A stretch of DNA of 64,000 bases from Chondrosia reniformis (lineage: Eukaryota > Porifera > Demospongiae > Chondrillida > Chondrillidae): the NCBI GenBank assembly GCA_947172415.1, contig OX359191.1, forward strand, positions 1,736,001 to 1,800,000, in the 5' to 3' direction. The translations under genes were made by a program, and so were the position numbers. Shown here piece after piece: positions 39,201 through 64,000 of the stretch (its first letter is position 1; each line of letters starts with the position of its first letter). Under the pieces are notes generated by a model that had not been told where the DNA came from, did no database searches, and saw only the letters and a list, made by a program, of their open reading frames with translations.

Positions 39201-42200
39201 GAGGGACTCGTATTGAAAGATCTAAAAGTATGTAAAAGACGTGTGACAGACTTTACAGTTGAAGGTATCCCTAAATGTACGTATGACTCGATCCTCTGAC
39301 ATTTACAGGGAGTGTATGGTCCGGGTAAAAGGCACTGGCTTAAAGTGAGTTTTTATTTTGTTTTATTATTAATTCAAGTATTTCCATGGCAACAGCCTCA
39401 ATTGTGTAGATGAAGAAGGACTACTTGGCTGGAGGTTCTATGGCTGATAGTGCAGACCTAGTGGTATTAGGGGCCTACTATGGAACTGGCAACAAAGGTA
39501 TTCAAATTGCAGTAGCCATGGTTACTTGTATACGCCAATGCAATACTCAACACACTTAGTCTGGTAATGGACTGACCCAATTAGCTATAGCAGATTATAA
39601 TGTTACTCATACGTAGTAGATGTACGTATTTGTTGCATTTATAATAAAAAGATAATTACGTATATATTTAAGCATCAGCAACACTTATATTTGAGATTTG
39701 GACGTACGTAAGTCTTCTTCAGCAATATATACCTACCTTTTCATAGATGTACCATACTGCGTATATATACATATGTACATATGGACTGTTCTATTGAGCT
39801 ATGGACTACATGTTTATTTCCCATTTATGAATGTGTACTGATTGTGGTTGCCATGACAACATTCTGTTCCTCCTTATGTATTTATATATCAGGTGGGATG
39901 ATGTCAGTGTTTCTGATGGGACTGTATGATCCTGTTTGTAAGAAGTGGAAAACGGTAGCTAAGTGTGGTAATGGCCACGATGATGCAACAATTACCAAAT
40001 TGCAGTCTGAATTGAATGTAGTCAAGATACAAAAGGTTAGTTATAGCAAACTTTAGTCCCTGATTTTCTGGTCTGTTGCAATGAACTGAGTTACTGTGCA
40101 TGGAACTCTACATTCAACTATAATCTTGTTTCATCCCATAACTTGGTCAATGTGTGCCACCCATCCATCCATCCTCCCACCCTTCCATATCTACTATCCA
40201 TCCTCCCACCCTTCCATAGTCTACTATCCACCCATCCATCCATCCTCCCGCCCTTCCATAGTCTACTATCCACCCATCCATCCATCCTCCCGCCCTTCCA
40301 TAGTCTACTATCCATCCTCCCGCCCTTCCATAGTCTACTATCCACCCATCCATCCATCCTCCCACCCTTCCATAGTCTACTATCCATCCACCCGCCCTTC
40401 CATAGTCTACTATCCACCCATCCATCCATCCACCCACCCTTCCATAGTCTACTATCCATCCACCCACCCTTCCATAGTCTACTATCCACCCATCCATCCA
40501 TCCTCCCACCTTTCCATAGTCTACTATCCACCCATCCATCCATCCTCCCACCCTTCCATAGTCTACTATCCACCCATCCATCCATCCACCCACCTTTCCT
40601 TTCAGTCTACTATCCATCCACCCACCTTTCCATTTAGTCTACTATCCATCCACCCACCTTTCCATTCAGTCTACTATCCATCCACCCACCTTTCCATTTA
40701 GTCTACTATCCATCCACCTACCCTTCCACAGTCTACTATCCATCCACCCACCTTTCCATTTAGTCTACTATCCATCCACCCACCTTTCCATTCAGTCTAC
40801 TATCCATCCACCCACCTTTCCATTCAGTCTACTATCCATCCACCCACCTTTCCATTTAGTCTACTATCCATCCACCCACCTTTCCATTCAGTCTACTATC
40901 CATCCATCCTCCCACCCTTCCACAGTCTACTATCCATCTATCTATCCATCCACCCACCCTTCCATAGTCTACTATCCATCCTACCACCCTCCATTCAGTC
41001 TACTATCCATCTCCCTATTCAGGACCCATCAAAGGTTCCCAGTTGGTTGAGTGTTCACAAGACATTGATTCCAGATTTTGTTGTAGCAGATCCAAAAGTA
41101 AGTGATTTATAGTCAAGTAAGCCTTTAGCCAACATCAATATACTATATAGGATTTGGATCTGTCCTTATTTTAAATCCTATTATACGTACATACATACAT
41201 TTGTATGTCCTACATATCGCTGTTACCTATATTTCCTACGTTCTTTTGTAAAACACTAAAGACCACTTTTAAACAACTTTTTAACTATTTGAGCTGGCTA
41301 TGTCTGAAAGACTTCAAATATAAAAATTATTTCTTTCTATACTGTATACTTCAGCTCTGCACCATTGTAGTGATGCATTCATATACATACATGTAACTCC
41401 CTTCTCCTGCAGACGGCCCCTGTTTGGGAGATAGCAGGAGCAGAGTTCTCCCAATCATCCACTCATACGGCAGATGGAATATCAATTAGATTTCCTAGAG
41501 TGACTCGGATTCGTGATGACAAAGACTGGCAAACAGCTACTGATTTAGATCGTCTTAAGGTACAGTATTGTACATACGTACATACGTAGTATAATAATAA
41601 AGCTACTGTGATTGGAATGTATCATTTTATTTGTCTTTTTCAAAAATAAATAGGAGAATCATGGCTTATAGGTTAATAGCCCAACCTAGGAATAGCTACT
41701 ATGCATATGTTGTATATATAGCAGTAAAGCTTTTCTAAATCCAGTATTATATACGTATATTAGATCTAAAAGGTTTTTCTACCTTTACTTTAGAGACTTC
41801 TGAAACTTGACCTTCAACTATTGTACATACGTACGTATACGTATATGTACATATTATGAATGTTGGTTGCCTGAATGTGACTCTCTAATAATCTACTCTT
41901 TAGGTTTTGTACAAAACATCAAAGGAATCCACAGGTAACTTAACTCATGTATTAAAGGATCCTTATATCTTATCACATACATATACCTAACATTGTTGGT
42001 ATGAATAGCTGGAAATATTGGTGGAGCAATATTTGATGGCTACCTTAAATTAATTTAACTCATATATTAAAGGATCCTCATATCTACCATTGTTGGTATG
42101 AATAGCTGGAAATATTGATGGATCAATATTTGGAGGAATGCCTGAGTTTAGGCATGTATTTGATCATTTGTAACATGTATGTATGTACTCCCAAAGTGTT

Positions 42201-43881
42201 TGCAAGTTAAAATATTGATGGCTACCTCTCTAACAGAATATTGCCCATAGTGTATTTCCAGCTACCTACAGTATATGATTATCTATGGATACTAATCATA
42301 TGTTATAGTATCACATGACACTCACATGCAAACATTAATGGTAATATAATTTGATGGTTTTGTTCCCCATTTGGCTTAGTTTGAGTGTGAATATGAATTA
42401 AATAATTTGTATATACGTATGTACATACACAAACCTATGAATAATCTAACACACCATTTTTCAACATGCTACATCTACTTTAGATTAAAGGCCTATAGGG
42501 AACTAAACCTAGTGAGAGCTTTGGATGAGGATACAAGAGTTTCTCCTTCTACTTCTCTTCTTCTCCACTGGTAGTACATATATATGTGTTATGTGCATTT
42601 GTGATGTGCTGTCCATCCATAGATGTAGATGTTGCTATGGAAACAGAAGGTGGTGATCTAGATCAAGATGAGGATATGGAACAAGACATGCCTACCTCAT
42701 CAAAGAAAGGGTTTACCCCCAAAAGGGAGCCCCTCCCCCAGACTGAGGAAGATGAAGTTCCAGCTGCAAAGAAGAAAAGAGTTGTGTGCAAGTATGGTGC
42801 ACAGTGCTACCAGACCACCCTGGAGCACAGGAGAAAGTATTCACACCCAAATGAGGAGGGTCAGGGTGGGGGAGCTGTAAGTGGCGTATGGAGGGACTCT
42901 ACTTCATAGTAATAACTATAATAGACTAATTATGTACATACGTACTGTATGTAAGTAAACAGGCTCTGCATGGCATATATATGTACATGTATGTACATAT
43001 ATATGTTCTATGTTCTGTATAGGCGAGCCTGCCAAACCTGTTTAGTAACAAGGTTTTCTATCTGGACAAGAGTTCGTTGGACATGTATGATGACCTGAAA
43101 CGCTACATTATAGCGTAAGTTATGATATTGTGACATACAATTCTATATCTTTCATTGCTGATTTAGACTTTCCTTCAAGCCTAATATTGCTGAAACTAAA
43201 TATTTTATCACTTCTCCCATCATTTCAATACCATCTAAAAATTACAAGACAACTTTATGTACAGTATATACGTACAGTATATACTGTATATACAGTATGT
43301 ACGTACATACGTATATACGTATATAAGAAGTCAGTCTGTTTCCTCTTTGGCTACTATAGATATGATGGTGAGATAACAGATGATGCAGAACTGAAAGATG
43401 CCACACATTTCATTAGCTCTGCTTCTCCACAGGTAAATATAATAGCTTCATAGAGGTCTAATGTACTGTACTTATATGGCTGGATATTTGGCAAAACTTT
43501 ATCTACTTTTACTATTCATTATTTTTAGTATGTTCTAAGATAGTACTGTATGCGTGATAATTTGGTGGGACCATTTTGGTAGAATTGTTAGTCAAATTGA
43601 AGGATATTTAATTTTTAAATTATACAGTATATTGGCTGTTTACTTCATATGTTTTCACTAATTATGAGGCTTAGCTTCTATCCAAAGAATTGAGTGGCTC
43701 TTAATTGTATAAATTGTAGATCCCACCATATATGTACAATACTAATTACACTTTATATTTGGATTTTATCTGATGTACGTAGAAATTATCAAAGAATATT
43801 CCAATTGTGAGACCAGATTGGATTTGGGACACTCTAAAAGCTGGAAAGTTACAGATGGTGGACAATTACTTGAATAATTAG
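36297..43881 (+). CDS. LIG3: DNA ligase III with N-terminal PARP-type zinc finger, extra PBZ finger and C-terminal BRCT, 948 aa
   Basis: Nineteen exons: 36297-36582, 36809-37228, 37533-37681, 37902-38146, 38240-38414, 38478-38702, 38765-38827, 38903-38982, 39062-39227, 39309-39344, 39410-39497, 39893-40035, 41023-41097, 41413-41559, 41904-41934, 42623-42876, 43023-43114, 43360-43432, 43783-43881. Total 2,847 nt, in frame throughout. Exon 1: PARP-type zinc finger (GCKKCKK, WYHVGC), which senses nicks. Exon 2: a linker with nine TPSKS units. Exons 3-5: DNA-binding domain. Exons 6-12: nucleotidyl-transferase core with the AMP-accepting Lys in EVKYDGERVQ, then motif GLVLKD. Exons 13-15: OB fold with RIRDDKDW. 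Exon 16: acidic linker and a PBZ finger CKYGAQCY...H-x5-H. Exons 17-19: BRCT, which in relatives binds XRCC1. An in-frame ATG at 36255 would add 14 residues; vertebrate LIG3 uses an upstream start for a mitochondrial form, but this extension is too short to call. Ligates nicks in base-excision and single-strand break repair. The PBZ is the unusual part. Confidence 0.95.
36889..37077 (+). repeat. In-frame 21-bp coding minisatellite (TPSKSSA x 9)
   Basis: Nine units of ACTCCTTCTAAATCGTCTGC plus T, the last two with TCTACT in place of TCGTCT, encode TPSKSSA or TPSKSTA in the ligase III linker. Units are nearly identical at the DNA level, so recent expansion is likely. Each unit carries a TPxK site of the kind phosphorylated by cyclin-dependent kinases. 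Confidence 0.95.
40155..41015 (+). repeat. Intronic minisatellite, ligase III intron 12
   Basis: About 25-30 units built on CTTCCATAGTCTACTATCCA plus variable CATCCATCC/CACCCACC runs. The proximal half has a CATAGT version and the distal half an ATTTAGT or ATTCAGT version. The strand is pyrimidine-rich. Long frames over it on both strands have no stops only because of composition; the region is bounded by the donor at 40036 and the acceptor at 41022. Confidence 0.95.
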
Positions 43882-43979
43882 AAACTTAAATTAGTAATTT
43901 TCTAATTTACGTACTTGTAAAATAGTTACATAGATAGCGTCACAAGTATTTTGTATGTATATTAAAAAAATGAATACAT

Positions 43980-45033: not shown

Positions 45034-48000
45034 TTAAGAGGTATATGTGATACAATAGGCAGGGTAGGACTGGTCATTACGCTGCACAATGTAAACAGGC
45101 TTCAGTACATCAGATGTCCCCAGATCTCCCAAGATGCTGTCATAATGCTCATCTACATCTACTTGTTTTGCTTCGTTTTTCTTTTTCTTTAATAGACTGA
45201 GGTCATTCCTATTCTGTGTACAATCTTTAGCATCTCCTAGCAGGACCTTTGCTACTAGCATCTTACAGAGCCCATCTCTACCCCTGCCTACATATCCATG
45301 TGATACATTAGCATCTCTGGCAAAATAGGCTCCACGACCATATAGCCCAGCTCTGCTCTCCAGAACATCAAAGCTTCTTTGACCTTTATAAATTGCCTCT
45401 GCAACACTGACACTAGTGCCATGAAAAGCAGTCATTTCATTGCAGTACCCAAGTCTCTCTACAAGAAGACTTTTCCTCGAGGCATAATCTTTCCAGAGGA
45501 CAAGGTTCTGAATCCTTTCAATACAGAAGATTTGTGCTTGCATCTTCCCCATGCTACTGTAGAAACGTTCTGAGATGCTAATGTATTCGCTGCAAGAGGT
45601 TCTCAACGGAACAAGAACAAATTTTCGTTCTTTCATGCAGTTTGATAGCCAGTCTTTGGGCAAATCTAAGTATATATAAAGAAAAATTGTAGTATTTTAA
45701 CCTGGTTGAGGTCATACGTACAGTACAATGACATGTACGTACTGTGTATAATTATTCATAGAAAAATATATAAAAAGTTTGCAAGTATAACAGAGGCAAA
45801 GAAAGTAGTGAGTGTAACTAGATTAGTCCTTGTGTACTATATACATAGGTCTATATATACCGCTTGTATATACTATACATACATACATACTCATATACTC
45901 CATATAGGTCTATACTGCATGACTCAGTACTTTAAGCATACCAGTAGGACATTCTGCTTCCTCTCTGCAATTTGGCAAAACAGCCTCCACTTCATCCATC
46001 ATTTTTTTCACACTGGGAAAATTGTCTTCAATTGTTTTAAACACTTTATGCACTGCAGCCATGACCTCTTTTGCTTCAGAGAAGTGTCTCCTATAATAAC
46101 CAGCCGGAGCTTCCTTTGGAATAGTGTAGTCTGGATGGCGACACTGCATGAAGTGCCTGGATATTTGGAGTACCTGGGGCATCAAATCTACATTTGAATT
46201 CCATAATCTTTGCTTTTGTAACTCCTGACAGAGATCCTTAACGTTAGTATGGAATACAAGCTTCTGGTCCAGACCAAATAAAGCTAAAAATAAAGCCTTT
46301 AAACACTTTTCAGTACATTCATGTGCCAAAAAACACACCTGGGCGGGAAATACCTTAATGATGCTTACAGATGGATTCTCATTCAACAATCGGGCAGATG
46401 CATCTAGCAGGCTAGAAGCAGCTTCACAGTCATTTAAGGCCTGAATCAGCCACATTTTGGCCTCGATGGTATTGGGCTGAGGTTCTGGTTCCTCTTCAAC
46501 TTTGTCCTGCCATAGAGTATGCCTATAGCTACTGGAACCTCCACCCATCCACAAGCCACTACGACTAACCCTTGTATGTGTATAAGTGTCTCTCCTACCA
46601 CCTGTGGCCATATGAGAATCTGATTGGCCATAATTAGAACCATTAAAGGAGCTATATGATTGGCTATGGGTAGCAGGAGTAGTTATAGAAATGTACTGCT
46701 GTATTAACTGTTTCCTGATCTCCTTCAGCCTTTCAAGTTCAGCAAGAACCATTTCATATTCATCAGAAATAAGTGAAAGCACCACTTCACTGATTTGGGC
46801 AAAGTTAGCAGAAGTGCTCTTTAGGCATAAATATTGAAGATGATACAAGATTCGCTCAATCATGTGCGAGAATTGAGGTTGAGAGTAGTCAACTTTGACT
46901 TGATTAAATGTGTCTATTAGCTGTGCTCGGAGCTCCTCCACATTCTCAATGTTAAAGGAGAGTAGAGTAATAGGCTCTGCTGATGCTTTATCTAATGCAC
47001 TCAGTTCAGGAGTTAATGAATCTGTCTCAGTGAGTTTCCAAACTTTTAAGATTTCATTTTTCAGATACAAAGATGAAATGTATTTACTCAATAACAGCGG
47101 GTGACATTTGACATTCTCCTTGATTTCTTCATCTTTCTTGCATTTGGGCTTAACAACTAGCAAACAGGATGTTGGATTTCCATTATCATCAGTTTCAATA
47201 TTCACTATTTTTGCATTAATAACTTCTCCTTCTTTAGTCTTGTATTTAACAATTTCATTTATTCTGAAATTGCAGATAATAATATGATTCAAGAATGTTA
47301 CAAACCTAACATTCATGCCAATGTCAGACCCAGACTGGCTATCAGTATTATGCACATACATAGGTATTCGAAGTTCTGTCAGTAGTTTAGTAATCATAGA
47401 AGATTCACTGACAGAGATCATTTCTTTAAGAAAATAGCTATCTCGGATGACTCCATTGAACTGTTTATTCAATCCAGTTATCAAGTCATGGAGCAGCTTA
47501 TCATAGTTAACTGCATCCTTATGAGGTGTGATGTAAGCATGTATACTACAATTAGGTGGTTCATCAGTTGTAACCAAGCAAGAAATGTCTTCATTAGTGG
47601 AATTGGGTACTTCAGTACCATTCTTACTGCACAAAACGGTTTTAATCATCTGCACACACAAAATACGCAAAGAAGACAAACGCTGGGATAGTAATTCCAC
47701 AACTTCCTCAGAAGGTGGTTTCTGAGTATCATATTTGATCAATCTTAGCAGTCCAGTGAAGAACTGATCTGATTTTAAAATGGTTTCCAAATGAGTAACA
47801 AACTTGCATCCTTCACTATCATCCAACTCTTTTAATCTCTCTTCTGTACATTTATTGGCTTCATTCAACATCTGAGTATGAGCAGTTTCCTGGTATTCAT
47901 GTGATAACAGCTTCACATTCAACCAATCAGGAACAGTTACATTTCCATTTTCATCTTTTGGTGGAGGCAAAAGGAATTTTAAATGCTTAAGGGCATCCCC

Positions 48001-51000
48001 CAATCTATCTGCAAACCATGGTGTATCATTTAATACCAAAGTATCAGCTGGTTCCAAGGTATAGTCTTGTGAAAGAAGGGGAGGCACTGGGACAGGGGCT
48101 GGCTGCTCATGATTAGGAGTCACATTTCTAGCAAATGCTATAAATTTGTCATAGGCTACTATGGCAGCTGATTTACTGTTTGGATTAACAGCGTTTGGCT
48201 GCAGGTGACTGTGTAATGTCTTTAAAACTAGAGCACAATGGGAGATAGTTAATTCACGTGACACTCCAAGTAGTTCCAAAAACTTTGTCAGATGTTTGCA
48301 ATACTCTGGAACAAGCTGTATAAAAGGTATGAGATTTTCCTCACCTCTTTGTAGGAACTCCACCACATGCCTTCCAGGTAAAAGTTGAAAGTTACCTATG
48401 GAATCTTTATTATCCAGAAGAAGACAGTTGCATTTCTGAAGCATGTTGCAGAGCATAGGCTGATCTTCACAGGTATACCCATTGAGATATTCATAGTGTT
48501 CAAGAAACATGCTTTTAATGGTTTGAGAATGGAAGAATTTACCATGGCTTGGTAGAATTATATTATTGTGAAATATTTCTGATAATTTGATTAAATTGGT
48601 TGCCACTATTTTAGAATTTACAGTTGACACTCCTAAAGCTTCCAGCAATTCAGGGTTGATGCTTTTGGAAATTCTAAATGTCTCAGGTAGCATGGGTTTA
48701 GTGAAACATGCCAGTAAGCAACTTCCTTTTGTAGGGTGAATAACACTGTTTCTTAAAGTGATAAGTCCAGTGTGTGGCAGCTGACAATTATTGGGGAACA
48801 ATTTTTTAATTAGAGATACTTGCTCATGTTGAAATTTCCAGTTTTGTGATGGAATAAAGTTAATAGAAGAAGCCTTTCTCAGAAACAACACTTCTGCAGA
48901 ATTTAAAGCTTTAGATTTCGTTAGCTCAGCCCAATTTGTGAGATGATACAAAAGCAAATTACATTTTCTTAAATAAACTTTATTTGACAGATATGTTTCA
49001 TTAGCAAGCTGATTAGCAAATTTCAACCAAGAATCGTCTGTAACTTTATGGATTAACCCTACATTCTTTAGAAATTTAATCCATTTAGAGTTATTGAGGT
49101 TGGCAGGGGGAAAGTGATCTTCACTTAAAAATGCTTCAAACAGCATATTGTTGGGGTCATACAGTTGCTTTGCCATTACAGCTCCCTGTGGAGTAGTTAT
49201 GAAACTTAAATTGGAAAGTTGAGAGAATATTTCCTTCCATATTGAAGCATCTGGGTCAGAGCTAGTAATGTACAGTTTTTGTAGAAACTCAACATGCGAC
49301 AGAATGTCATCAGCTGAGCATACTGTAAAATACTGCAGTAAGTGAAAGTTGTAGAGGTTCAATAAATTAGGTACATCTTTAGTGTAAATTTGAATTTGTG
49401 CACATTTTATGAAGCTTTCACAGAAAGGAGGTATTTCTATAATTGCAAAATTTTTTTGGTGCCACAGTTCCTTTAATCCTTCATATGGTATAGAATTGGC
49501 TTCAATGGCTATGACCTTTGGAAAAGTGTTTACCTGTGTAAGTGTCCCATCAGTTAAAAGGAAGAGTGGGATTTCCTTCAACCATGGTTGGCACCCCTGC
49601 TTGAGCTGGGTTGCTTTGGCTAACAGAGACACCAAACTGTGCACATCCTTTGGCTTAACATTTTCAATTTTATCAAGAGAATGTTTGTGGTGGCATAGGA
49701 CCTTTAATAGCTCATCTGCATTATGAGAATGTGCAAAAAGTCCAGAGAACATGCTTGTAGCTATGTTTATCAACTTCTTATCTACAACAGGAACATTGAA
49801 CAAATCTAATAATGGAAGGTCAGTGTTGGAAGAGTAGAGTACCACTTTACCAAGACATAAGGGATATAGCTGATCAGTTGATGTTGGAACAACCGAAAAC
49901 CTTCCAAGCTTGCAATGATGTACAGGATGTACATCAGACAAAAAAGACCAGAATGTAACCAACTTTTGGATTGTTTCCTCATCTACTGGTAGTGGTCTGA
50001 TAGATCCATCTTGTGGTAGCAAGAGATGTTCAGCAACAAACTCAGGATGGTTTGAGAGTGACCTAATGATCCTTAAATTATCAAGCTTCAGATTTATAGG
50101 ACAAACTCTCTCAATATCTTCATGGACAAAATGACCTTTACAGTGTGGTAGCAGATCTGAATGTTTGGAGGCAAAGACTTCACACATTAACTTCAATTCA
50201 CCATCACTTGTTTTCATCAGTGGAAGTTGCTGTAAATACTGTTTCCAATTGCAATCATCTTCAATATCGCCTAAGCAGTATTTCAATAATGGTATTAATG
50301 ACTTTAATATGGTTTCTCTGTAGCATTCAAAATCAGCTGACATTTGGCGTAAATACTTCCTAACAGTTTGAGGATTGATAACACCCTCATATGAAATTTT
50401 ATTGCTTTCTGAAAGTCTAAGTGAATCTTTCAGATATTGAGCTACTTTGTAGGGAGCACATGTGAGAGGAAGATCTAACATTAACAAAGTCTCTGCTTCC
50501 AGATCATCATAAACGTGTTTGCGATAGAACAATCCCATTGTGGATCTGTCATTTGATAATGAAAGCCAAGCATTGTTACTCTGCATTGAAAGAAGAATTT
50601 TTGCCTTTTCCTCAAACAACATAACATACAGTTTCTCTGGGAGTTGAAACTCTTCTAATTTGCCAGGAGATGACACATTTGGAAAAAGACTATAATACCA
50701 TCCAGTGAAATGTTTAGGGTTCCAGGTGCTGAACTGCTTGCAATGTACCAACAGCTCATAATAAGCTTTTAGAACCACATTCTGTAGGAGTGATGCATTC
50801 CAATCTTTCAAAATGTGGCTTGTGCTGTGCTGAAGATCTCTTCTAGAGTCACTCAACCAAAAATGTCCATTTACATGAACTGGTAAGTCAGACTTAAGTG
50901 GAAGAGGTAGATAGCAAAACAAGGAATGGTCAGACTCAGAAACTGTAGCAAATGTCTTAGTTTCACAGGTACCATCAACCAGTTTGGCAGCAACTCCTCC

Positions 51001-54000
51001 CAGTGGTAGGAAGCTATGTTGGAACCCCAAGGTCAACAACTTTGGGTCCACATCTCTATTTCCATACCTCTTACTGACCAACCAAGTATTGTCTGATTCT
51101 ACATTTCTATATTCACTTAATTGCTTAGCAGTAATCTCACTTTGTGTATGTAATTCAATCTCCTTCCTTATTAACGAATGCAAAGACACTCTGTATATGA
51201 CCTGCGGGCTAAGACTACAAATGGGATCATCAGTCTCACCTTTCTTAGCAGCAGAGATAACCTTATACATTTTGTTATTGAATTCTTGAGATAGCTTTAA
51301 GTCATCTTTATTGAGAGTAGCAGTAGTGGAACCAAGTAATGTACATTGTTCATTAGCATCAATCTCAAAACATGAAATATGCTTCACTTCTTTTAGAAAG
51401 AGTAGAGTGTCTTCAATTCTTTCAACAAAACCTTTCAACAGCCCTCTAAGCTTAGGAACAGTCATTACTTCCCCACTATCTATGTGTTTATAGGCAAAGT
51501 GTTTTAGTGAATCTCTGGTAAGGGGAAGCCTAAAAATAACAAATCCATTAGGCCAACTTTGGTCACAGTCTTTAAATGAATCAGGGTTGGTTTGATGGAG
51601 CTTTTTAAGAGTTTCGTCAGAAAATGGCTTCATTTGGTCTTTTAGAACATCACTGAGACTACAATCCAGTTTGCGCAGTTTCCAGTGTCTACCAGGACTA
51701 ACTTTGGAACTCTTGGGTGCAAATTGAAGGGTTGGATCAAATGTGCAAAAGTCCTCAGGGATTCCTTCTTCGGAATGAGACACAAACATAGGACAATCTG
51801 TAATATGATAAGATACATTAAAACCAATTCCAAATCTTCCAATTGATTCAGGTGAATCCTTCTTTCCACCACAGCCAAGCTTGGTAATACCATCAATATC
51901 ATTCTTAGTGAACTTTCTGTTATTGAAAATCAAAAGGGAAGGAACACTTTGCAAGTCCTTCCAGTTCTCTTTCTGAGTGAAAAGCTTTTCATCTAGAAAT
52001 CGTCTGCAGTCAAGAATAAATGAAACTTCAGAAGCACCAGCATCATCTGCATTTTGAATGAACTCTTGAAACAGAGATGCATCAGCATGATAATTCTTTA
52101 GAATGCCACTAATGCGATCACACAAATCTTCATATTGCCCATAATCTGTTCCTTCTAAAAAGTCTAAATTTTCATATTTTGAGGATAAAGCTTCAACTGG
52201 ATTATCAATGCCTAGCCTCTGTGCAATTGAGAGAGAAATGTCTGGGTGTAAGCAATATCTGATGTCTTCAGTAGTAATCTGACCTAGGCTTCAGAGCCAA
52301 GATGAAACATTATCATCCATGTACATTAACTCAGACGTGTGCCTCAATACACTATCTTTATCTGGTAAATATAGGTCAAAGCTTTCTACACTTAGTCTAT
52401 CTGCCAAAGAAATTCTTCGCGCACATGAAATGACAAATTCAAGCACTTTCTGGTTTATACTCTCAAAATAAGTATTTTTGATTTTGCATAAAGTCTGCAC
52501 TATGTGAATAGGTTCGGCTCTATCTCTGACTCCAAGTTTTGTTAATAGTACTCTGTGATCATCTGGTGCTTTCATTAGAAATGGTGAGCATGTAAGATCT
52601 TCATTAAAAAAGACTTGATCAAATTTGTAAAAATGTTCACTAACCCATACAAAAGGTAAGGCTTTCAATGTTTCTAAAACTCTTAAAACCTCAGCAGATT
52701 CAGCTTTGTTATATTCATTAGGTTGGTTAGCACTCTTAATGCTTGAGGAGAAAGAAAAATAAATCTGGTCAGTAACTTTAGTCACAAAATTAAGAAGAGA
52801 CTTTCTTTCTTCCATTTCAATCTTATCACCACTAATTTCTGTAAAGGAGTTCCACCATTGCACAATAGTTGCTAAATGTTCCACCACATCAGCAACCTCT
52901 GGTTCAGACTGAAATTGCAAACATGCTGACAGCCTTTCATTAAAGGAATCATGTACAATTAGCCTTTTTGTAAAAACAACAGCTTCCTTACATGAAAGAT
53001 TCAGATTAGATGAAGCTTCAAATATGTTATCAGTTTCTTTCCAACATGTAAGATGCTGCAGTGGCTTCTTCTTTACTTGTAGAAATTGTACAACAGACAG
53101 CTGTTTAACAAGTTCTTTATCTTCATAACTTAATGAGCCATCATTATAAGGCTTAAGAGCATCATGAAAGTGGCATTCAACCAAGTATGACTGAAAATAT
53201 TGGCTTCGCTTCTCTGCTTTCTCAGGATCTAAATTAACTACTGATTTAGCCCTATCTATAACATCTGTGTTTCTCAACTTGACATGTGCCATTCCAAGCT
53301 CCTCAAGAATCTTCAATACTTTTTCATCTCCAGCAAATCGGTCTGATGGAAATTTCCTCTCACCATCCTCATCACCATCATAGAGGACAGCAAGTGCATG
53401 GACCTTTGGATTAATAAGGTCAACTGGGAGACACAACTGGTAATCATAGTTGGTTGGCACAAACTCAGTTTCCCTCAGCTTGTCCTTCAGCCACGAATGC
53501 TGCTCACACAATCCTTCAAAATGCCTTAATATAAATAATAGCACTTCATCTCTGATTTCAGATGAAACTTTCTTTATATTTGAAAGGAAGCGATCGCAAA
53601 ACTCCTTAAATGAATATCTTTCAAAATAGGTAAAGAGGGTAGGTGGTACATCAACTACAGGTTCATTCAAAGAGATTAAAACATCAAGAATGTTCTTACA
53701 CATTTCTTCATCAAAAGGTTTGATATGAAAATCGCTACTCAAAACTTGAACTTCCTGTGGAGATACCCAACAGCCACCAACTTCATTGGTCCTCAGCCAA
53801 ATTATCTTGCTATTTGTAGTCTTTAAGCTGGATTTAAAGCTTTCTGCTAGTACTGGTCGAACTGTATCCAGGACAGCACCTTCATGACAATGATGTGGAA
53901 ATATAGAATAGTAGGACTGCAGAAACTCTTCCATCATGTGACTGTCATGTGGTGCATACCTTGTGAGGCCTTGCAGCAATTCAAGCAGGGCACACACTAC

Positions 54001-57000
54001 AGCATCTTGGATTAAAAATTTATTCCAATCAGTTATTTTTAGCAACTTTCGATCTTGAGTAACTTCAAAATATCCATTTATATGAAAATGTAAAGTTGTA
54101 GTAAATGGAAGAGGCAAAAAGCAAGATATTCCACCTTCTGTTCTAAGTGGGATGTACTGATTACCCTCACCAATAGTCATTAATTTTACAGCAACTTCAG
54201 CAAAAGGCACAAGTCCAGATTCACTTTGATTTGAAGCATGCTGCAGACTTTCATTTATTCCAAGAGCTGAAGAAACCATCCACAAAGATGATTGAGATTT
54301 ATTGTCTAATACTTCCACAATTTGGGAAGATGGTGTCATTGAATTAGAAATATCTTTTGGCAGTGTAAACCTCTTCTTAAAATAGGTGCTTCCTGGATCA
54401 GTCCTTTCTATCAATAAAAGTTGATTTACCTCTGAATTCTGATCTGTTGTCTCATATAACTCTATCTGGTTAACATTCTGTAAGAACAACAACAAATTTG
54501 CAGCAGTTTCTGATAATGATCGCTTCAGTATATCCACCCTCTTAGATCCCTGAGAGAAAAGATCATCGCTTATCTCACTCACTATACCAGATTTACGGAA
54601 AGGAAATCTAAATAAGGTACCATCAAATCCATTAGGTGGAGGGCTAACAATGCTACACCCAAAGACACCTTCATAGGGAGCTATTTGGTCTGAGTAGTAC
54701 TCCTTCAGGCCTGTGTTTCGCTTCACAAAGTCAATCAGCATACCTGGTTTAGTTGGCTGCACTCTTTCTCCAAGATATTTCAGATTTGGATCAAATATCT
54801 GTAGCCAGTTCTTGGTAACAAAACTTGGAACATCTGTCAGATGATAGGTTGCACAAAACCCAACTCCAAAACGACCAATTTTTGTATGATCAGTGAGTTT
54901 GGTTTGTCCTGCTATTTTGCAGATATTCCTCAAATCACTTTCACTGAATGTCTTGTCGTTATATGCATACAAAGCTGGGCCTTGCCAAGCTGCCATTTCT
55001 TTAGTTACCAAGTGTGACTGTCCAAACTGCTTCCAAGATATAAGGAACTTTACTACAGTAGCTCCAGCATCATCAGCATTTTGTATCAGCTCCTTGAAAA
55101 CATCAATATTGTCACCGTAATCTTCCACAAGACATTTGATTCTATGAGTGATGGATTCATGAGGCCCAGTTGATTCATATTCAACCTCAAGAGCCTCTGA
55201 TGGAGCTACTTTGATACTTAGAGGTTGTATGCTGAAATATCTGGCTACCTCAGCTGTAACAGATTTGTGTAAAAAGTAAAGAGATTTCTCATCTTCTTTT
55301 ATGAGACCTTTCTCCAAGTATTGGTCATCGTAAATGAGTTCTGAAGGGGATTTTAAGTAATTAGCTGTACTTGGCAATACAAAATTAGGAATAGAGGGGC
55401 CTTTTTTAAATTTCACTACCTGATTAGCAACAGAGACAACAATGTCTAACTGCTCAGGGCTAAGTGTGCCATGTTGGCCTAGTGAGGAGTGTATCTCATG
55501 AACTACTTCCACTCCATCTTCAGCTGCCAAACACTTGGATACTCCACTCTCCAGCCACATATCTTTGTGGTCCCTCAGACACGATGCATCTTGTAGACTG
55601 TATCTGTAAGGAGCCAAAGAGCAGTTTCCTAATGGCTTCAAAGCACATTTGGCCTTTGTGACAAACTTGTACTCTGAGTCAATCCAAATACAAGCCTGCT
55701 CAGCATTTAAGAAGGAACAAGAAGACTGACCTGCAAAATATTCATATATTGATTTAATCATCATTAAAACTTCCTTGTCTTTCAATACATTACTTGGCAG
55801 AGAGGTTATATTAGCAAAGTGCTTCTCTACAGTGTTAGGAGTAACTACAGCAAACTCCTGTGATGTCACTCGTGGATAATCACTGGACAGAAATAGTAAC
55901 ACAGATCCTACCAAATGTGAGTGAGAGAGATCCAAACAGAGTTCTGCTGGAGAGCATAACCGGTTCACCTTACTCCCGGCCCACAGGAGCTGTTTAGGAT
56001 ATTTAGGAGGTGGGGATTGTTTAGAGAATAGAAATGGGATTGACTTCAAGCTCTGAAGCAAGTGTGCACACTTTCCGTTATTGAAGATTTCTGTTAAAAT
56101 AAGCAGAGATCGTTTAACTGCTTCTTCCTTTGACACTTTAGTTAGAGCCACTTGAACTGATCTAGCTCTCTCTTCTATAAAGTATAAAAAGGTCGTGTCG
56201 CTATCGATCACACTCTCCCATGTCTTAAGATTATACAGTCTCAGTTTAGAAAGTACCTTATCATAATCTTTTGGAGGAAAAGGAGAGTCAAAGGGGAGAA
56301 AGAAATCTTTTAGCTTACTATCCTTGGGGTCATAAAGCTTACAAATATACTGTAAGGGACCATTTGCTGTGGGAATTATGGCTGTCTTACTTATAAACTG
56401 CTCCAATTCGCTATTTTGGTACTCTGGGTGAGAGCACTCAATCAACCACAGCAGTAGAGCATTTCTCATTGTAAAGTGCTGTTTAGTGGCAAATGGATAT
56501 AATTTCTGAGCAAACTGCCCCAGTGAGGAAGGTACCACTCCAACTGCCCTCTGGTAAAGGTCTATATCTTCATGACAGACTTTCAATATGTTGTCAGGGA
56601 AAGGAATATTTGTTGGAAATTGAATAGTTGATAAAGGCAAAATGTAAACATGTGGTGACATCAGATTTGTAAAATGACTTCCTCCCTTTCCCACCCCACA
56701 CTCAAATATAGGTAGTGATCTGATAAAAGTCAATTTATTGCTTGTCAAACTGTTGAGTGATTGACCAGCTGAAGATAGATATGAACGAAGTAGTCTTTTT
56801 TGCTCATCATTAAGTAACTGAGATACTCTTTGAGCAACCTCAGGTAAATTAGGCAAGACATGGAGAAGACCTTTGGGACTCAGCTTAGGCAAATATTGAT
56901 TTAATTCTGGTCCTAATCTGAAATAACAATGTGAATTTTTAACTAAAACACAACCCAACAATTGTGCCATGTCATTTACGTCTCGGTTTGATCCACTGCA

Positions 57001-58928
57001 AAATAATTTTCCTGTATCAAGACGGTAAAGAGAATATGTTCCTCTATTAGTGACATTTTCTGGTCCTTCTGCCACCACAAGGGGGAGGGTGATGACACTA
57101 CTAATGACTTCATTATTAGTAATGTAGGTCCAAACATTTAGCAGCCATTCAGCTGAAGGATGATTGTTTCTATTGGGGGTCCACTGAACTGGATTAACAT
57201 GAGTATGCGTCCAAGTCTGAATGGATGCTGGGAGAAGGGAATTACATACCATCTGTGCATTAGCCACGATCAATTTGTTAATCTTAGACCTTGCAAGCCG
57301 GTTAAATAATTTCCCTAGATCAGTGTAAAGAACATTTGAAAGAATAAGGTTATCAAGATTATGCAAGACTTTAGAAAGACTTTCATTGACTAGGTAAACC
57401 TTTTGCTGTCCAAATGGAACAACTTGTCCACTCTTCAACAAAAGAAGTGGAATGTTGGTAAGCTCATCAGTTCTATCAGAAGTAACAAAACGAAGGCAAT
57501 CCTTTAACAGAGAGATGTCAGAATTCACTTTAGACTTTAACATTTCATTACTTCTGAACCACTTCCTTACAACTTGTGGTGTCACTTCTGCGATGGGTAA
57601 CTGGCAATCCTGCTGAATGTGGCTTGGAAAACAGACTACAGGAAGGCCAAGTTGAATCAAAAGATCTAAAATGGAATTTGGGATGGTTCCATTCAGGGGA
57701 GGGCAGAAGGCTTCACAGGGTTTTACCCACTTTCCTCCACCAGCTGGAGTCCAAAGAACAGGAAGGTTAGACAGGAGGGGAAGCACCTTTTTCACAAGGT
57801 ACTCCCAAGCCTTTTCCCTTGTCTTACTCATTAGAGGAAGCAAAGCAAATGGACGACTTCTCTTACACAGCTGTTGATAAGAAAAAGAGGGGAACTGGAA
57901 GGTCATCAGGGAACAGCTGGTTGTGATAAGAACAGCATATGATGGAGAAATGAGATGCCGAACAAGACACTTGTTCCATTTGGCTTCATCACTTTGATCA
58001 TCACGATCTGGCCATCGAACTCTTCTTCGGTTGTCTGAAAGACTAAAGTAGCCATGAATATGTACTGGAAGACCAGTATCACGACTAGAAGACATTGGAA
58101 GGAAGCAGAAAGCAAATCCCTTGCTATCCAACGTAGCAGGTGAGGCTTCAATAGAGAGTATCTTTCTATTTTTATGAAATGTTTTTAAAACAATATTTTC
58201 AATATGGCTACAGTCTGGCTTTTCACTGATAAGCCCTTTAAATACCTGTTGAGGTGGAGATATGGGACTAGGTAAGGGGGCAGCTAGGCCAATCCGTGGA
58301 ATAACTTTAAGCTTCTTTGCAAGGCCTACCATTTCTGCATTGCTTGACCCCACTGTATTGCACACAAGATACGAGTACTGAGCAGTACCTTTACTGAGAG
58401 GTCTCTCTACCCTGATTGTACACTCACTGATGCTACAGACAGGAGTCTGCAGTCCCTTAGCTTTTTGTGAATCCTTCGATTTCTCTATACACCACTGCCT
58501 GGTGGTGGACACATCGCCACCTTCTATAGCAACTCTAAGTAGCAGTTCGGGTTGGAATCTCTTTGAGGAGTGCACCTGTCGGTATAACTCAACAGTGGTC
58601 ACATGATTGAGGAACAAAAGAAGACGAGGCGCCTCCTCAGCAAGAGATTCATAGAGGACCCTGTGAGCTTCATCAGCAGTGAACATTCGATCAGAGATTT
58701 TGGAAATGAATTTATTATTGCGAAATGGGAAGCGAAAGAGTGTTCCATCGTAGCGGTTCGTATGGTTGTAGAACCCAAATACTCCCTCAAATGGAGCTGA
58801 TTGAACAGCATATTTGTTGAACTCCTCCAATGGGAATCTTCCAGTCTTATTTTTACCTTCATTCTTAATGATTGTCTCATGAGGATCCATTATACCAACA
58901 CAATCTCCACTGACTATAGTGGGTAGAT
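45034..58928 (-). CDS. Giant sacsin-like protein (SIRPT repeats, HEPN) fused to a PARP catalytic domain; one in-frame TGA
   Basis: One long exon 58928-45942 joins a last exon 45665-45034 (donor G|GTATGC, acceptor TACTTAG|AT, phases match). About 4,540 codons lie in the window. Three sacsin repeats (SIRPT) are visible: the first from its middle (VSGDCVGIMDPHE, LPVHIHGYFSLSDNRR), the second from about 55,190 with an Hsp90-like ATPase site (ELIQNADDAGAT, GRFGVGF), the third from about 52,140 (EFIQNADDAGAS, GRFGIGF). A HEPN domain lies at about 46,480-46,020. No DnaJ domain is seen before it, unlike vertebrate sacsin. The last exon gives a PARP domain: FHGTS, GLYGRGAYFA, then SYPAYCITY; the position of the catalytic Glu (KPVYIV) is Val, so mono-ADP-ribosylation is likeliest. 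Codon TGA at 52293-52291 interrupts the frame, but the same frame continues through 55 open codons into repeat 3. The N-terminal part must lie upstream, beyond an acceptor at 58929, past or within the minisatellite. Sacsin acts in chaperoning and filament control; the PARP link is new to me. Confidence 0.82.
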
Positions 58929-59404
58929 CTACACATGAAAATGTAATTCAATTAAGGCACTCTTGAGAAATGATACCATACCTTCAGACAGTACAATATG
59001 TATGTATTTCTATACCAGTGCATTGGCAAGGAATCTAGTGTATGCTACGGAAGCAATCCCTTGGGTGATGTTTTAGTTATCATCTGGTAATACGCATGTA
59101 ATTAGCCTGATGATATCCAATTAAGTGATTCAATTACCGACATCACTTGGATGTACACTATTAGAACTACTGCCCATTCAAGTAGCATGTTTTGTATGAT
59201 GCTCATGATGGCCATCACTGAGGGTTTGATACTCTGCCCTTTCATGAGTCATTTATGGTATACTACAGATCCACTGTAAGTATGTCATATTGATAAGTCA
59301 AAAAAGATAATAAACATTTCTATGATTCAACGAGTAGCAAAGACTCTGGTTCACATCAATCAGACTTAGGTCTTTATAGGAGATTGCACAAATAGGCTGT
59401 TGGG
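58929..59404. other. Intron or upstream region of the sacsin-like gene
   Basis: An acceptor (CATGTGTAG) ends here at 58929, so this is intron. The missing first half of SIRPT repeat 1 is not found in it; a possible small exon (about 59,000) before a GTATGG donor is too short to trust. No other feature seen. Confidence 0.5.
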
Positions 59405-62400
59405 TTAAATGAGAACTGGGGCCTGCCTTATATACACTGGGGGCTGGATATATTAGTGGCTGGATACACTGGGGGCTGGATACACTGGGGGCTGGATACA
59501 CTGGGGCTGTATACATTGGGGGCTGGATACACTGGGGGCTGGATACACTGGGGGCTGGATACACTGGAGGGATGGATACACTGGGGGCTGGATACACTGG
59601 GGACTGGATACACTGGGAGCTGGATATACTGGGGGCTGGATACATTGGGGGCTGTATACACTGGGGGCTGGATACACTGGGGGCTGGATACACTGGGGGC
59701 TGGATACACTGGGGGCTGGATACATTGGGGGCTGGATACATTGGGGGCTGGATACACTGGTGGATGGATACACTGGGGGATGGATACACTGGGGGCTGGA
59801 TACACTGGGGGCTGGATACACTGGGGGCTGGATACACTGGGGGCTGGATACACTGGGGGCTGGATACACTGGGGGCTGGATACACTGGGGGCTGGATACA
59901 CTGGGAGCTGGATATACTGGGGGCTGGATACATTGGGGGATGGATACACTGGAGGGATGGATACACTGGGGGCTGGATACACTGGGAGCTGGATACACTG
60001 GGGGCTGGATACACTGGGGGCTGGATACACTGGAGGGATGGATACACTGGGGGCTGGATACACTGGAGGGATGGATACACTGGGGGCTGGATACACTGGG
60101 GGATGGATACACTGGGGGCTGTATACACTGGGGGCTGGATACACTGGAGGGATGGATACACTGGGGGCTGGATACACTGGGGGCTGGATACACTGGGGGC
60201 TGTTTACACTGGAGGGATGGATACACTGGGGGCTGTATACACTGGGGGATGGATACACTGGAGGGATGGATACACTGGGGGCTGGATACACTGGGAGCTG
60301 GATATACTGGGGGCTGGATACATTGGGGGCTGTTTACACTGGAGGGATGGATACACTGGGGCTGAATACACTGGAGGGATGGATACACTGGGGGCTGTAT
60401 ACACTGGGGGATGGATACACTGGAGGGATGGATACACTGGGGGCTGGATACACTGGGGGCTGGATACACTGGGGACTGGATACACTGGGGGCTGGATACA
60501 CTGGGGGCTGGATACACTGGGGGCTGGATACACTGGGGGCTGGATACACTGGGGGCTGGATACACTGGGGGCTGTATACACTGGGGGCTGTATACACTGG
60601 GGGCTGTTTACACTGGAGGGATGGATACACTGGGGGCTGTATACACTGGGGGATGGATACACTGGAGGGATGGATACACTGGGGGCTGGATACACTGGGA
60701 GCTGGATATACTGGGGGCTGGATACATTGGGGGCTGTATACACTGGGGGCTGGATACACTGGGGGCTGGATATACTGGGGACTGGATACACTGGGGGCTG
60801 TATACACTGGGGGCTGGATACACTGGGGGCTGGATACACTGGGGGCTGGATACATTGGGGGCTGTATACACTGGGGGCTGGATACATTGGGGGCTGGATA
60901 CACTGGTGGATGGATACACTGGGGGCTGGATACACTGGGGGCTGGATACACTGGGGACTGGATACACTGGGGGATGGATACACTGGAGGGATGGATACAC
61001 TGGGAGCTGGATATACTGGGGGCTGGATACATTGGGGGCTGTATACACTGGGGGCTGGATACACTGGGGACTGGATACACTGGGGGATGGATACACTGGA
61101 GGGATGGATACACTGGGGGCTGGATACACTGGGAGCTGGATATACTGGGGGCTGGATACATTGGGGGCTGTATACACTGGGGGCTGGATACACTGGGGGC
61201 TGGATACACTGGGGGCTGGATACACTGGGGGCTGGATACACTGGGGGCTGTATACACTGGGGGATGGATACACTGGAGGGATGGATACACTGGGGGCTGG
61301 ATACACTGGGGGCTGTATACACTGGAGGGATGGATACACTGGAGGCTGGATACACTGGGGGATGGATACACTGGAGGGATGGATACACTGGGGGCTGGAT
61401 ACACTGGGGACTGTATACACTGGGGGCTGGATACACTGGGGGCTGGATACACTGGAGGGCTGGATACACTGGGGGCTGTATACACTGGGGGCTGGATACA
61501 CTGGAGGGATGGATACACTGGGGGCTGTATACTCTGGGGGATGGATACACTGGAGGGATGGATACACTGGGGGCTGGATACACTGGGGGCTGGATACACT
61601 GGAGGGATGGATACACTGGAGGGATGGATACACTGGGGGATGGATACACTGGAGGGATGGATACACTGGGGGATGGATACACTGGGGGATGGATACACTG
61701 GGGGATGGATACACTGGAGGGATGGATACACTGGGGGCTGGATACACTGGGGGCTGGATACACTGGAGGCTGGATACACTGGGGGCTGGATACACTGGGG
61801 GCTGTATACACTGGGGGCTGGATACACTGGAGGGATGGATACACTGGGGGATGGATACACTGGAGGCTGGATACACTGGGGGCTGGATACACTGGGGGCT
61901 GGATACACTGGGGGCTGGATACACTGGGGGCTGGATACACTGGAGGCTGTATACACTGGGGGATGGATACACTGGAGGGATGGATACACTGGGGGCTGTA
62001 TACACTGGGGGCTGGATACACTGGAGGGATGGATACACTGGGGGCTGGATACACTGGGGGCTGGATACACTGGGGGCTGTATACACTGGGGGATGGATAC
62101 ACTGGGGACTGGATACACTGGGGGATGGATACACTGGAGGGATGGATACACTGGGGGCTGGATACACTGGGAGCTGGATATACTGGGGGCTGGATACATT
62201 GGGGGCTGTATACACTGGGGGCTGGATACACTGGGGGCTGGATACACTGGGGGCTGGATACACTGGGGGCTGGATACACTGGGGGCTGTATACACTGGGG
62301 GATGGATACACTGGAGGGATGGATACACTGGGGGCTGGATACACTGGGGGCTGTATACACTGGAGGGATGGATACACTGGAGGCTGTATACACTGGGGGA

Positions 62401-64000
62401 TGGATACACTGGAGGGATGGATACACTGGGGGCTGGATACACTGGGGACTGTATACACTGGGGGCTGGATACACTGGGGGCTGGATACACTGGAGGGCTG
62501 GATACACTGGGGGCTGTATACACTGGGGGCTGGATACACTGGAGGGATGGATACACTGGGGGCTGTATACTCTGGGGGATGGATACACTGGAGGGATGGA
62601 TACACTGGGGGCTGGATACACTGGGGGCTGGATACACTGGGGGCTGGATACACTGGAGGGATGGATACACTGGAGGGATGGATACACTGGGGGATGGATA
62701 CACTGGAGGGATGGATACACTGGGGGATGGATACACTGGGGGATGGATACACTGGGGGATGGATACACTGGAGGGATGGATACACTGGGGGCTGGATACA
62801 CTGGGGGCTGGATACACTGGAGGCTGGATACACTGGGGGCTGGATACACTGGGGGCTGTATACACTGGGGGCTGGATACACTGGAGGGATGGATACACTG
62901 GGGGATGGATACACTGGAGGCTGGATACACTGGGGGCTGGATACACTGGGGGCTGGATACACTGGGGGCTGGATACACTGGGGGCTGGATACACTGGAGG
63001 CTGTATACACTGGGGGATGGATACACTGGAGGGATGGATACACTGGGGGCTGTATACACTGGGGGCTGGATACACTGGAGGGATGGATACACTGGGGGCT
63101 GGATACACTGGGGGCTGGATACACTGGGGGCTGTATACACTGGGGGCTGGATACACTGGAGGGATGGATACACTGGGGGCTGGATACACTGGAGGGATGG
63201 ATACACTGGGGGCTGGATACACTGGGGGCTGGATACACTGGAGGCTGTATACACTGGGGGATGGATACACTGGAGGGATGGATACACTGGGGGCTGTATA
63301 CACTGGGGGCTGGATACACTGGAGGGATGGATACACTGGGGGCTGGATACACTGGGGGCTGGATACATTGGGGGCTGGATACACTGGGGGCTGTATACAC
63401 TGGGGGATGGATACACTGGAGGCTGTATACACTGGGGGATGGATACACTGGAGGGATGGATACACTGGGGGCTGGATATACCGGGGGCTGGATACATTGG
63501 GGGCTGTATACACTGGGGGCTGGATACACTGGAGGGATGGACACACTGGGGGCTGGATACACTGGGGGCTGGATACACTGGGGGCTGTATACACTGGGGA
63601 CTGGATACACAGGAGGGATGGATACACTGGGGGCTGTATACTCTGGGGGATGGATACACTGGAGGGATGGATACACTGGGGGCTGGATACACTGGAGGGA
63701 TGGATACACTGGAGGGATGGATACACTGGGGGCTGGATACACTGGAGGGATGGATACACTGGGGGATGGATACACTGGGGGATGGATACACTGGGGGCTG
63801 GATACACTGGGGGCTGTATACACTGGGGGCTGGATACACTGGGGGCTGTATACATTGGGGGCTGGATACACTGGGGGCTGGATACACTGGGGGCTGGATA
63901 CACTGGGGGCTGTATACACTGGGGGATGGATACACTGGGGGATGGATACACTGGGGGATGGATACACTGGGGGATGGATAAACTGGGGGCTGGATACACT
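59405..64000 (+). repeat. G-rich 16-17-bp minisatellite, at least 4.6 kb, with higher-order structure
   Basis: Units are GGATACACTGGGGGCT (16 bp), with variants GGATACACTGGGGGAT, GTATACACTGGGGGCT and GGATACACTGGAGGGAT (17 bp). About 280 units reach the window end. The rare variant GTATACTCTGGGGGAT recurs at about 61,527, 62,567 and 63,628, and TATACTGGGGGCTGGATACA/TTGGGGG blocks recur at about 61,140 and 62,178. This shows a higher-order repeat of about 1.04-1.06 kb. Because neither strand of the unit has stop codons in any frame, very long open frames appear on both strands; none is a gene. It probably lies in an intron of, or just upstream of, the sacsin-like gene. Confidence 0.97.

What the first reader, a model, noticed from the sequence alone, without database searches (positions are those of the whole stretch)
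45034..52125. Sacsin-type chaperone repeats, HEPN and a PARP catalytic domain in one gene
The donor after ECPT (45942) and acceptor before LPKDW (45665) are phase-matched, placing a PARP domain directly after the HEPN domain of a sacsin-like protein. Vertebrate sacsin has a ubiquitin-like domain, three SIRPT repeats, XPCB, DnaJ and HEPN, and no PARP. Here the DnaJ domain is absent and a PARP sits at the end. I know of no described sacsin-PARP fusion. It would couple Hsp90-like ATP-driven remodelling to ADP-ribosylation of clients, or to stress or antiviral signalling.
Basis: partly seen in the sequence, partly recalled or inferred. Interest (0 to 1): 0.88.

Follow-up and report, generated by a model that had tools for sequence, protein, structure and literature searches.

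The report
Sponge sacsin chaperones fused to PARP
In a marine sponge the giant chaperone-like protein sacsin carries an extra enzyme at its end that tags proteins with ADP-ribose; the fusion looks real, is repeated in many gene copies and also occurs in a glass sponge, although the copy in this window holds a stop codon in the middle.

Summary
The window is Chondrosia reniformis chromosome 3 (named from contig lengths). A four-exon minus-strand gene encodes three SACS (sacsin GHKL-ATPase) repeats, a sacsin-type HEPN and, after a phase-1 GT-AG intron of 276 nt, a PARP12/14/15-like catalytic exon. No DnaJ or UBL was found.

The linkage is not chance. The genome has 11 HEPN+PARP loci on four chromosomes; all 11 junctions are phase-1 introns, with PARP copies as low as about 30% identical to the window's. 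All 46 SACS matches found lie in these clusters. A database protein of the glass sponge Oopsacas minuta has SACS, a weak HEPN and PARP in one chain. Nine contigs from unnamed sources seem to carry both SACS and PARP frames, judged by equal contig length.

Paralogues C1A, C12A and C13A are open from SACS1's second half to HEPN.

Function is inferred: ATP-driven sacsin remodelling directing mono-ADP-ribosylation, perhaps in defence. I found no description of the fusion in the papers searched.

The parts
45034..45665 (-). exon 4: PARP catalytic domain (209 full codons + stop), begins at the LPxxW motif
   Evidence: PF00644 E 5.7e-17; profile A2 to PARP15 E 5e-40; AlphaFold2 pLDDT 92.2, Foldseek top PARP15 E 1.6e-15
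45666..45941 (-). phase-1 GT-AG intron, 276 nt
   Evidence: phase-1 introns at 11 of 11 loci
45942..58928 (-). exon 3: second half of SACS1, SACS2, SACS3, linker, HEPN (interrupted by the TGA)
   Evidence: acceptor before 58928 matches in phase the donor of exon 2 at C3:1801392
46027..46350 (-). HEPN domain
   Evidence: PF05168; profile A3 hits sacsin HEPN 3O10 first, E 5.8e-7
51346..52131 (-). SACS repeat 3 (GHKL N-box EFIQNADDA and GRFGIGF present)
   Evidence: PF25794; motifs
52291..52293 (-). in-frame TGA between SACS2 and SACS3
54424..55161 (-). SACS repeat 2 (ELIQNADDA, GRFGVGF)
   Evidence: PF25794; sacsin structure 5v44 E 6e-40
58561..58928 (-). SACS repeat 1, second half (first half on exons 1-2, outside the window)
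   Evidence: exon 2 PF25794 E 9.9e-32
58929..64000 (-). intron 2 (window part; about 6.5 kb in all), mostly a 16-bp minisatellite
   Evidence: array 59432-64000, about 282 copies; intron ends

Best explanation
This is a member of a sacsin-HEPN-PARP gene family of siliceous sponges. SHOWN from sequence: three GHKL-type SACS repeats with intact N-box and glycine box, a sacsin-type HEPN, and a PARP12/14/15-type ADP-ribosyltransferase exon joined in phase by a conserved intron; 11 HEPN+PARP loci in the genome; no DnaJ found; a TGA in this copy. INFERRED: the SACS repeats bind ATP and a client (misfolded, foreign or viral protein or nucleoprotein); the ATP-driven change is passed through the HEPN (dimerising, nucleotide- or RNA-binding, probably not a nuclease) to the PARP, which mono-ADP-ribosylates the bound client or the protein itself. 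The PARP stands in for the Hsp70-recruiting DnaJ arm, so the output changes from handing over to Hsp70 to tagging. Tandem expansion with several broken copies suggests use in defence. My estimate is 0.95 for the architecture, 0.4 for this mechanism and 0.35 for a defence role.
For: Phase-1 intron at 11 of 11 HEPN/PARP junctions. All 46 SACS and all 5 Pfam-HEPN matches found in the genome lie in these loci (such counts are lower bounds). Oopsacas single chain. Ten shared contig lengths, one of them this species. PARP dN/dS 0.18, 0.20 and 0.22 between C3A, C3B and C1B, so the PARP was kept by selection. PARP His and Tyr invariant in 9 of 9 and in 56 of 56 aligned; confident fold. GHKL motifs in 3 of 3 repeats. 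SACS similarity to the PADLOC TmtA defence models, E 1.8e-70. PARP14 duplication is linked to viral pressure in a review (PMC13224862, passages).
Against: No transcript or protein was seen. This copy has an in-frame TGA; breaks were read directly in three other copies (C3B, C1B, C13E), and three more (C13B, C13C, C13D) change frame between domains, by a break or an unseen intron. The HEPN Rx4-6H motif is not conserved. The first search with the window's PARP among sacsin-length proteins found no sacsin, not even Oopsacas. Two named sponge sacsins, Oscarella and Sycon, show no PARP. No substrate, ligand or activity is known; a defence role rests on expansion and resemblance only.
Confidence: 0.6

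Rival explanations
1. The window's own copy is a decaying gene: translation ends at the TGA, giving at most a SACS1-SACS2 fragment, and the functional fusion is made only by paralogues.
For: In-frame TGA at 52291-52293 in an assembly of QV 69.8; copies C3B (its neighbour) and C1B are broken too. Weak: an unbroken long frame of this copy is not among the 120 listed SACS homologues, where it would rank high if held.
Against: 12,987 nt of exon 3 hold only this one break; splice sites and PARP motifs are intact. PARP dN/dS against C1B and C3B is low (0.18, 0.20), but that averages over a long time and does not date the stop.
Confidence: 0.5
2. The PARP exon is a separate small gene that begins at its own promoter just downstream of a HEPN-terminated sacsin.
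For: The intron is short, sponge genes are densely packed (recalled), and in 4 of 11 loci an in-frame Met precedes the domain. Retention gives a HEPN-terminated protein.
Against: In 7 of 11 loci the first Met of the frame lies inside the PARP domain, 9-58 residues in. Phase 1 is kept at 11 of 11. Oopsacas is recorded as one chain.
Confidence: 0.04
3. The fusion is a housekeeping proteostasis factor: ADP-ribosylation regulates chaperone clients or stress granules, with no immune role.
For: Sacsin is a chaperone (PMC3710099, passages); no SACS locus without HEPN+PARP nearby and no DnaJ in the clusters was found, so the fusion may have taken over the sacsin role.
Against: Eleven loci, up to seven SACS matches in one frame, several broken copies: turnover unlike a single-copy housekeeping gene.
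Confidence: 0.35

Closest known systems
Sacsin (SACS) of animals
   Same: Three SACS GHKL repeats, long linker, HEPN; best solved matches are chains named sacsin, 5v44 for SACS2 and 3O10 for HEPN.
   Different: No UBL or DnaJ found, plus a C-terminal PARP. Oscarella sacsin in the same search has a DnaJ-like HPDK segment and ends at HEPN.
PARP12/PARP14/PARP15 (clade-3 mono-ARTs)
   Same: Catalytic domain and fold.
   Different: No macro, RRM, WWE or KH domain; sacsin is the carrier. The sponge's own nearest PARP frames (C6:5340249, C3:1385143) are separate genes; their RRM and WWE parts are my reading of the sequence, not tested.
Amphimedon sacsin-like proteins with DEATH domains (PMC3710099) and sacsin fused to TRADD-N (PMC8195603)
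   Same: Animal sacsin modules joined to immune or death domains (passages).
   Different: The added domain there is an adaptor, here a C-terminal enzyme.
Oopsacas minuta 'Sacsin-like' (UniRef 'Poly [ADP-ribose] polymerase')
   Same: SACS repeats, HEPN-like stretch and PARP in one chain.
   Different: Longer (5363 aa), HEPN match weak (E 0.26, below cut-off). The main text of its genome paper has 0 occurrences of sacsin or PARP (PMC10280926).
Polarella glacialis SACS and PARP protein
   Same: SACS repeats and a C-terminal PARP in one chain.
   Different: A dinoflagellate; no HEPN listed; probably an independent fusion (inference).

Membership tests
Sacsin family | several SACS (GHKL) repeats in series | tested here: met
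   three repeats, all with N-box and glycine box
Sacsin family | C-terminal HEPN of sacsin type | tested here: met
   PF05168 over cut-off; sacsin 3O10 is the best structure match
Sacsin family | DnaJ domain before HEPN | tested here: not met
   no match, also none in P0071 from another contig; a divergent DnaJ can score low (Oscarella 16.5 bits)
Sacsin family | N-terminal UBL (vertebrates, per PMC3710099 passage) | tested here: not met
   exon 1 starts MCARKF and runs into SACS1; no UBL or DEATH match in six minus-strand frames within L081; exons further upstream not excluded
PARP/ARTD clade 3 | PARP catalytic fold with conserved His and Tyr | tested here: met
PARP/ARTD clade 3 | I/L/V in place of the polymerising Glu (mono-ART) | tested here: inconclusive
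   alignment to PARP12 puts V (I or V in paralogues) at the place of its Ile; that this Ile is the Glu position is recalled
HEPN RNase | conserved Rx4-6H | tested here: not met
   8 of 12 sequences have some Rx4-6H, at scattered positions; 4 have none
TmtA (PADLOC defence models) | similarity over the GHKL part | tested here: met
   E 1.8e-70, best stretch 396 of 1370 profile positions
TmtA (PADLOC defence models) | full-length prokaryotic defence protein | tested here: not met
   partial profile coverage in the best stretch; eukaryotic multi-repeat gene

The most novel reading that the evidence does not exclude
Siliceous sponges run an expanded family of ATP-driven sacsin sensors in which the Hsp70-recruiting arm was exchanged for a mono-ADP-ribosyltransferase: a chaperone-type immune receptor that recognises foreign or misfolded proteins through repeated SACS modules (three to about seven per gene) and marks them with ADP-ribose. 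Copies cut after SACS2 may be decoys or regulators.
Probability: 0.3. Interest if true: 0.85.

Novelty: new variant of a known kind. Interest (0 to 1): 0.66.

Why it matters
It gives a natural experiment on what sacsin's C-terminal arm is for: evolution seems to have exchanged the DnaJ for an ADP-ribosyltransferase and then multiplied the gene. It links two protein families of medical interest (sacsin, mutated in ARSACS, and the antiviral PARPs) and offers a testable idea that sacsin repeats are client-recognition devices that can be wired to different outputs. It also marks a gene family, seen in two sponge classes, that gene models can miss because the PARP sits on its own short last exon.

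Tried and rejected
Tried and rejected. (1) Chance splice sites: rejected by 11 of 11 phase-1 junctions (sites picked by eye, checked by script; about five divergent lineages, not 11 independent tests). (2) Separate PARP gene: see rivals. (3) The idea, held for a while, that the third PARP triad residue is Cys (YPAYC): dropped after the PARP12 alignment, which puts the position one strand earlier (V/I). (4) A short intron removing the TGA: none plausible by eye; C1A reads through the same stretch as exon. (5) PARP region search in sacsin-length proteins: 1 hit, not a sacsin; it missed Oopsacas, which one search shows to be in the database, so it was insensitive. (6) PADLOC on PARP and HEPN: no match. 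(7) C1A/C1B PARP dN/dS of 1.74 rests on about 26 changes and was not read as positive selection; other close pairs gave 0.59 (C13A/B), 0.26 (C13D/E) and 0.32 (C12A/B). (8) The PARP tree (quick, SH-aLRT only) puts all 11 Chondrosia copies, the linked rows and Oopsacas in a 71-row group with support 84; compatible with one origin, not proof. The labels 'sacp' and 'linked' need 4 and 5 changes, because unlabelled exons lie between; P0216 is a flagged long branch. Of 133 near-complete domains found, 93 went into the tree. (9) Searches list the best 120 of 2613 and of 181; counts are lower bounds. 2 of 120 listed SACS proteins carry a PARP in precomputed Pfam.
Full report
SOURCE. The window is G000:C3:1736001-1800000 of a 117,379,552-base, 15-contig genome. 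Contig lengths agree with the table for Chondrosia reniformis odChoReni1 in PMC12181767 (passages): 117.37 Mb, 14 chromosomes plus mitochondrion, primary QV 69.8. The name is an inference from sizes, but a close one.

OBSERVATION. On the minus strand lie two stop-to-stop frames in the same register, 52291-58947 and 45910-52290, parted by one TGA (52291-52293), and a 220-codon PARP frame at 45034-45696. Pfam finds SACS in both long frames, HEPN at the end of the second and PARP in the third. Retaining the intron gives ten more codons and a stop. The gene goes on beyond the window: exon 1 (C3:1802268-1802158, MCARKFEDDD...) and exon 2 (1801638-1801392; SACS E 9.9e-32) complete SACS repeat 1. So the model has four exons over about 21 kb and, with the TGA counted as one codon, about 4,658 codons. 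No UBL or DEATH match was found in six minus-strand frames of the 4.5 kb fetched there; exons further upstream are not excluded. A 16-bp minisatellite, 59432 to the window's end, fills most of intron 2.

IS IT MORE THAN CHANCE? Searching the whole genome gave 46 SACS matches, all in four chromosomal regions (C13 26, C1 8, C3 8, C12 4); 12 HEPN matches with the window's HEPN and 5 with the Pfam model, all in the same regions; and 43 PARP matches, 11 of them there. The tool calls such counts lower bounds. The 11 HEPN+PARP loci are C3A (window), C3B, C1A, C1B, C12A, C12B and C13A-E; all but C12B also have SACS. At 11 of 11 the HEPN exon ends in a phase-1 GT donor and the PARP exon begins after a phase-1 AG acceptor, just before a [FLIY]PxxW motif; intron lengths run from 107 to 1406 nt. 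I chose the sites by eye and the scripts checked phase and frame. PARP identities to the window copy in A2 are 30-35% for the distant groups and 62-65% for the near ones. The copies form about five divergent lineages, so these are not 11 independent tests. In 7 of 11 the first Met of the PARP frame lies within the domain, which argues against a gene of its own; in 4 of 11 an in-frame Met precedes it.

OTHER SPECIES. Among the best 120 of 2613 SACS homologues, two carry PF00644: P0102, Oopsacas minuta (glass sponge), and P0118, Polarella glacialis (dinoflagellate). P0102 ends in a HEPN-like stretch (E 0.26, below cut-off) followed by PARP (E 3.3e-18). Oscarella lobularis P0121 has a DnaJ-like HPDK segment (E 0.009, below cut-off), then HEPN (E 0.0017, below cut-off), and no PARP match. 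Sycon P0031 has HEPN and no PARP among its precomputed domains. These are single gene models, so absence may be annotation. A PARP profile search gave 181 hits, 120 listed, mostly short frames from unnamed contigs. Ten exact longest-contig lengths occur in both lists (85 SACS and 117 PARP lengths). One, 10,369,955, belongs to Chondrosia itself (the P0056 tail equals the C1A read-through tail). Two are only 24,967 and 27,220 bases long and hold a 6416- or 6374-residue SACS frame plus a PARP frame. Equal length is taken as the same contig; I could not open these contigs. The tree mixes Chondrosia lineages with linked exons of other sources (P0216, a flagged long branch, with C1/C3 at 100; P0130, P0137, P0150 and P0173 with C13A/B at 84), so the duplications seem older than the species. 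Hence the fusion is probably old in siliceous sponges, and the DnaJ was lost there; the dinoflagellate case looks independent. Both are inferences.

WHAT THE PARTS ARE. SACS2 matches the sacsin structure 5v44 (E 6e-40); the HEPN profile matches sacsin HEPN 3O10 best (E 5.8e-7); the PARP matches PARP15, PARP12 and PARP14. The AlphaFold2 model of the window's PARP exon (56 sequences) has pLDDT 92.2 and pTM 0.88, and Foldseek's first hit is PARP15 (E 1.6e-15, TMq 0.79). All three SACS repeats keep the GHKL N-box and glycine box. His and Tyr of the PARP site are invariant in 9 of 9 and 56 of 56 aligned sequences. The third position is V here and I or V in paralogues if the PARP12 alignment is right (the identity of that position is recalled), as expected for a mono-transferase; in PARP14 a leucine there limits it to mono-ADP-ribosylation (PMC13224862, passage). 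The RNase motif Rx4-6H of HEPN is not conserved, so binding rather than cutting is more likely.

STATE OF THE COPIES. Judged by the open frames that hold the domain matches, C1A (4420 codons), C12A (4338) and C13A (5454) are open from the second half of SACS1 to HEPN. Breaks read directly: C3A (TGA), C3B and C13E (stops) and C1B (frameshift). C3B has a further TGA in its SACS1 match. C13B, C13C and C13D change frame between domain matches; that can be a break or an intron, and I did not read them. The four directly read breaks fall within roughly 80 homologous codons, at or just before the start of the last SACS. That is unexpected for random decay; I have no tested explanation. PARP exons evolved under constraint between C3A, C3B and C1B (dN/dS 0.18-0.22). 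Close pairs gave 0.26, 0.32, 0.59 and 1.74 on few changes.

MECHANISM. Shown: domains, motifs, splice structure, copy number. From published work: sacsin repeats are Hsp90-like ATPase modules and sacsin acts as a chaperone (PMC3710099, passages); most PARPs other than the polymerases are mono-ADP-ribosyltransferases, several of them interferon-induced and antiviral (PMC13224862, passages). Inferred: ATP-driven client handling by SACS sets the PARP to work on the client or on itself. SACS is also similar to PADLOC's TmtA defence models (that TmtA stands for the Tiamat system is recalled). Sponge sacsins fused to DEATH domains and animal sacsin-TRADD-N fusions are in print (PMC3710099, PMC8195603; passages). 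A defence role is my favoured but unproven reading.

LITERATURE. Searches with sacsin + PARP + HEPN (1 paper), sacsin + Amphimedon (3), sacsin + ADP-ribos (32, 20 listed), sacsin + sponge (7) and sacsin + PARP + fusion + domain architecture (1) showed no description of the fusion in the listings or in the passages read. A survey of PARPs (PMC4245714, passages) lists Amphimedon PARP14-like proteins with macro, WWE and RRM domains; HEPN, HATPase and Hsp90 do not occur in its held text. The library is open-access only; figures and supplements were not seen.

VERDICT. A real, conserved domain architecture, undescribed in what I could search: a new variant of sacsin. The copy in the window is probably impaired; its family is not.

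Noticed in passing
window 52291-52293 and the homologous stretch of C3B, C1B, C13E: Frame breaks of four paralogues fall within about 80 codons at or just before the start of the last SACS repeat; chance, hot spot or a programmed short product is unresolved.
   Followed up: partly
window 59432-64000: Minisatellite of a 16-bp unit (about 282 copies), GC-skewed and free of stops in several frames, giving spurious open frames of more than 1000 codons; it lies in intron 2 of the gene.
   Followed up: partly
G000:C13:4120000-4280000: Cluster of sacsin-PARP genes; C13D has seven SACS matches in one frame of 6666 codons.
   Followed up: partly
L012, L003 (C1A HEPN): The HEPN of paralogue C1A holds a tandem duplication of a 35-residue stretch (KQSQQIKAANQNQPNVLEVFPAQVCFLLH...).
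   Followed up: no
P0118 (Polarella glacialis): A dinoflagellate protein with SACS repeats and a C-terminal PARP, probably an independent fusion of the same two families.
   Followed up: no
window 36237-43883: Plus-strand frames that read like DNA ligase III (zf-PARP-like finger, ligase-like part, end resembling BRCT), convergent with the sacsin-PARP gene; judged by eye only.
   Followed up: no
window 3170-6241: Frame of 1023 codons that looks like a Gypsy-type polyprotein (reverse transcriptase to integrase); by eye only.
   Followed up: no
G000:C6:5340249 and C3:1385143 (L058, L060): Two PARP genes in single long frames with RRM-like and WWE-like parts (by eye); best-scoring non-sacsin PARPs of this genome against the fused-PARP profile, whose domain also starts with FPxEW.
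   Followed up: partly
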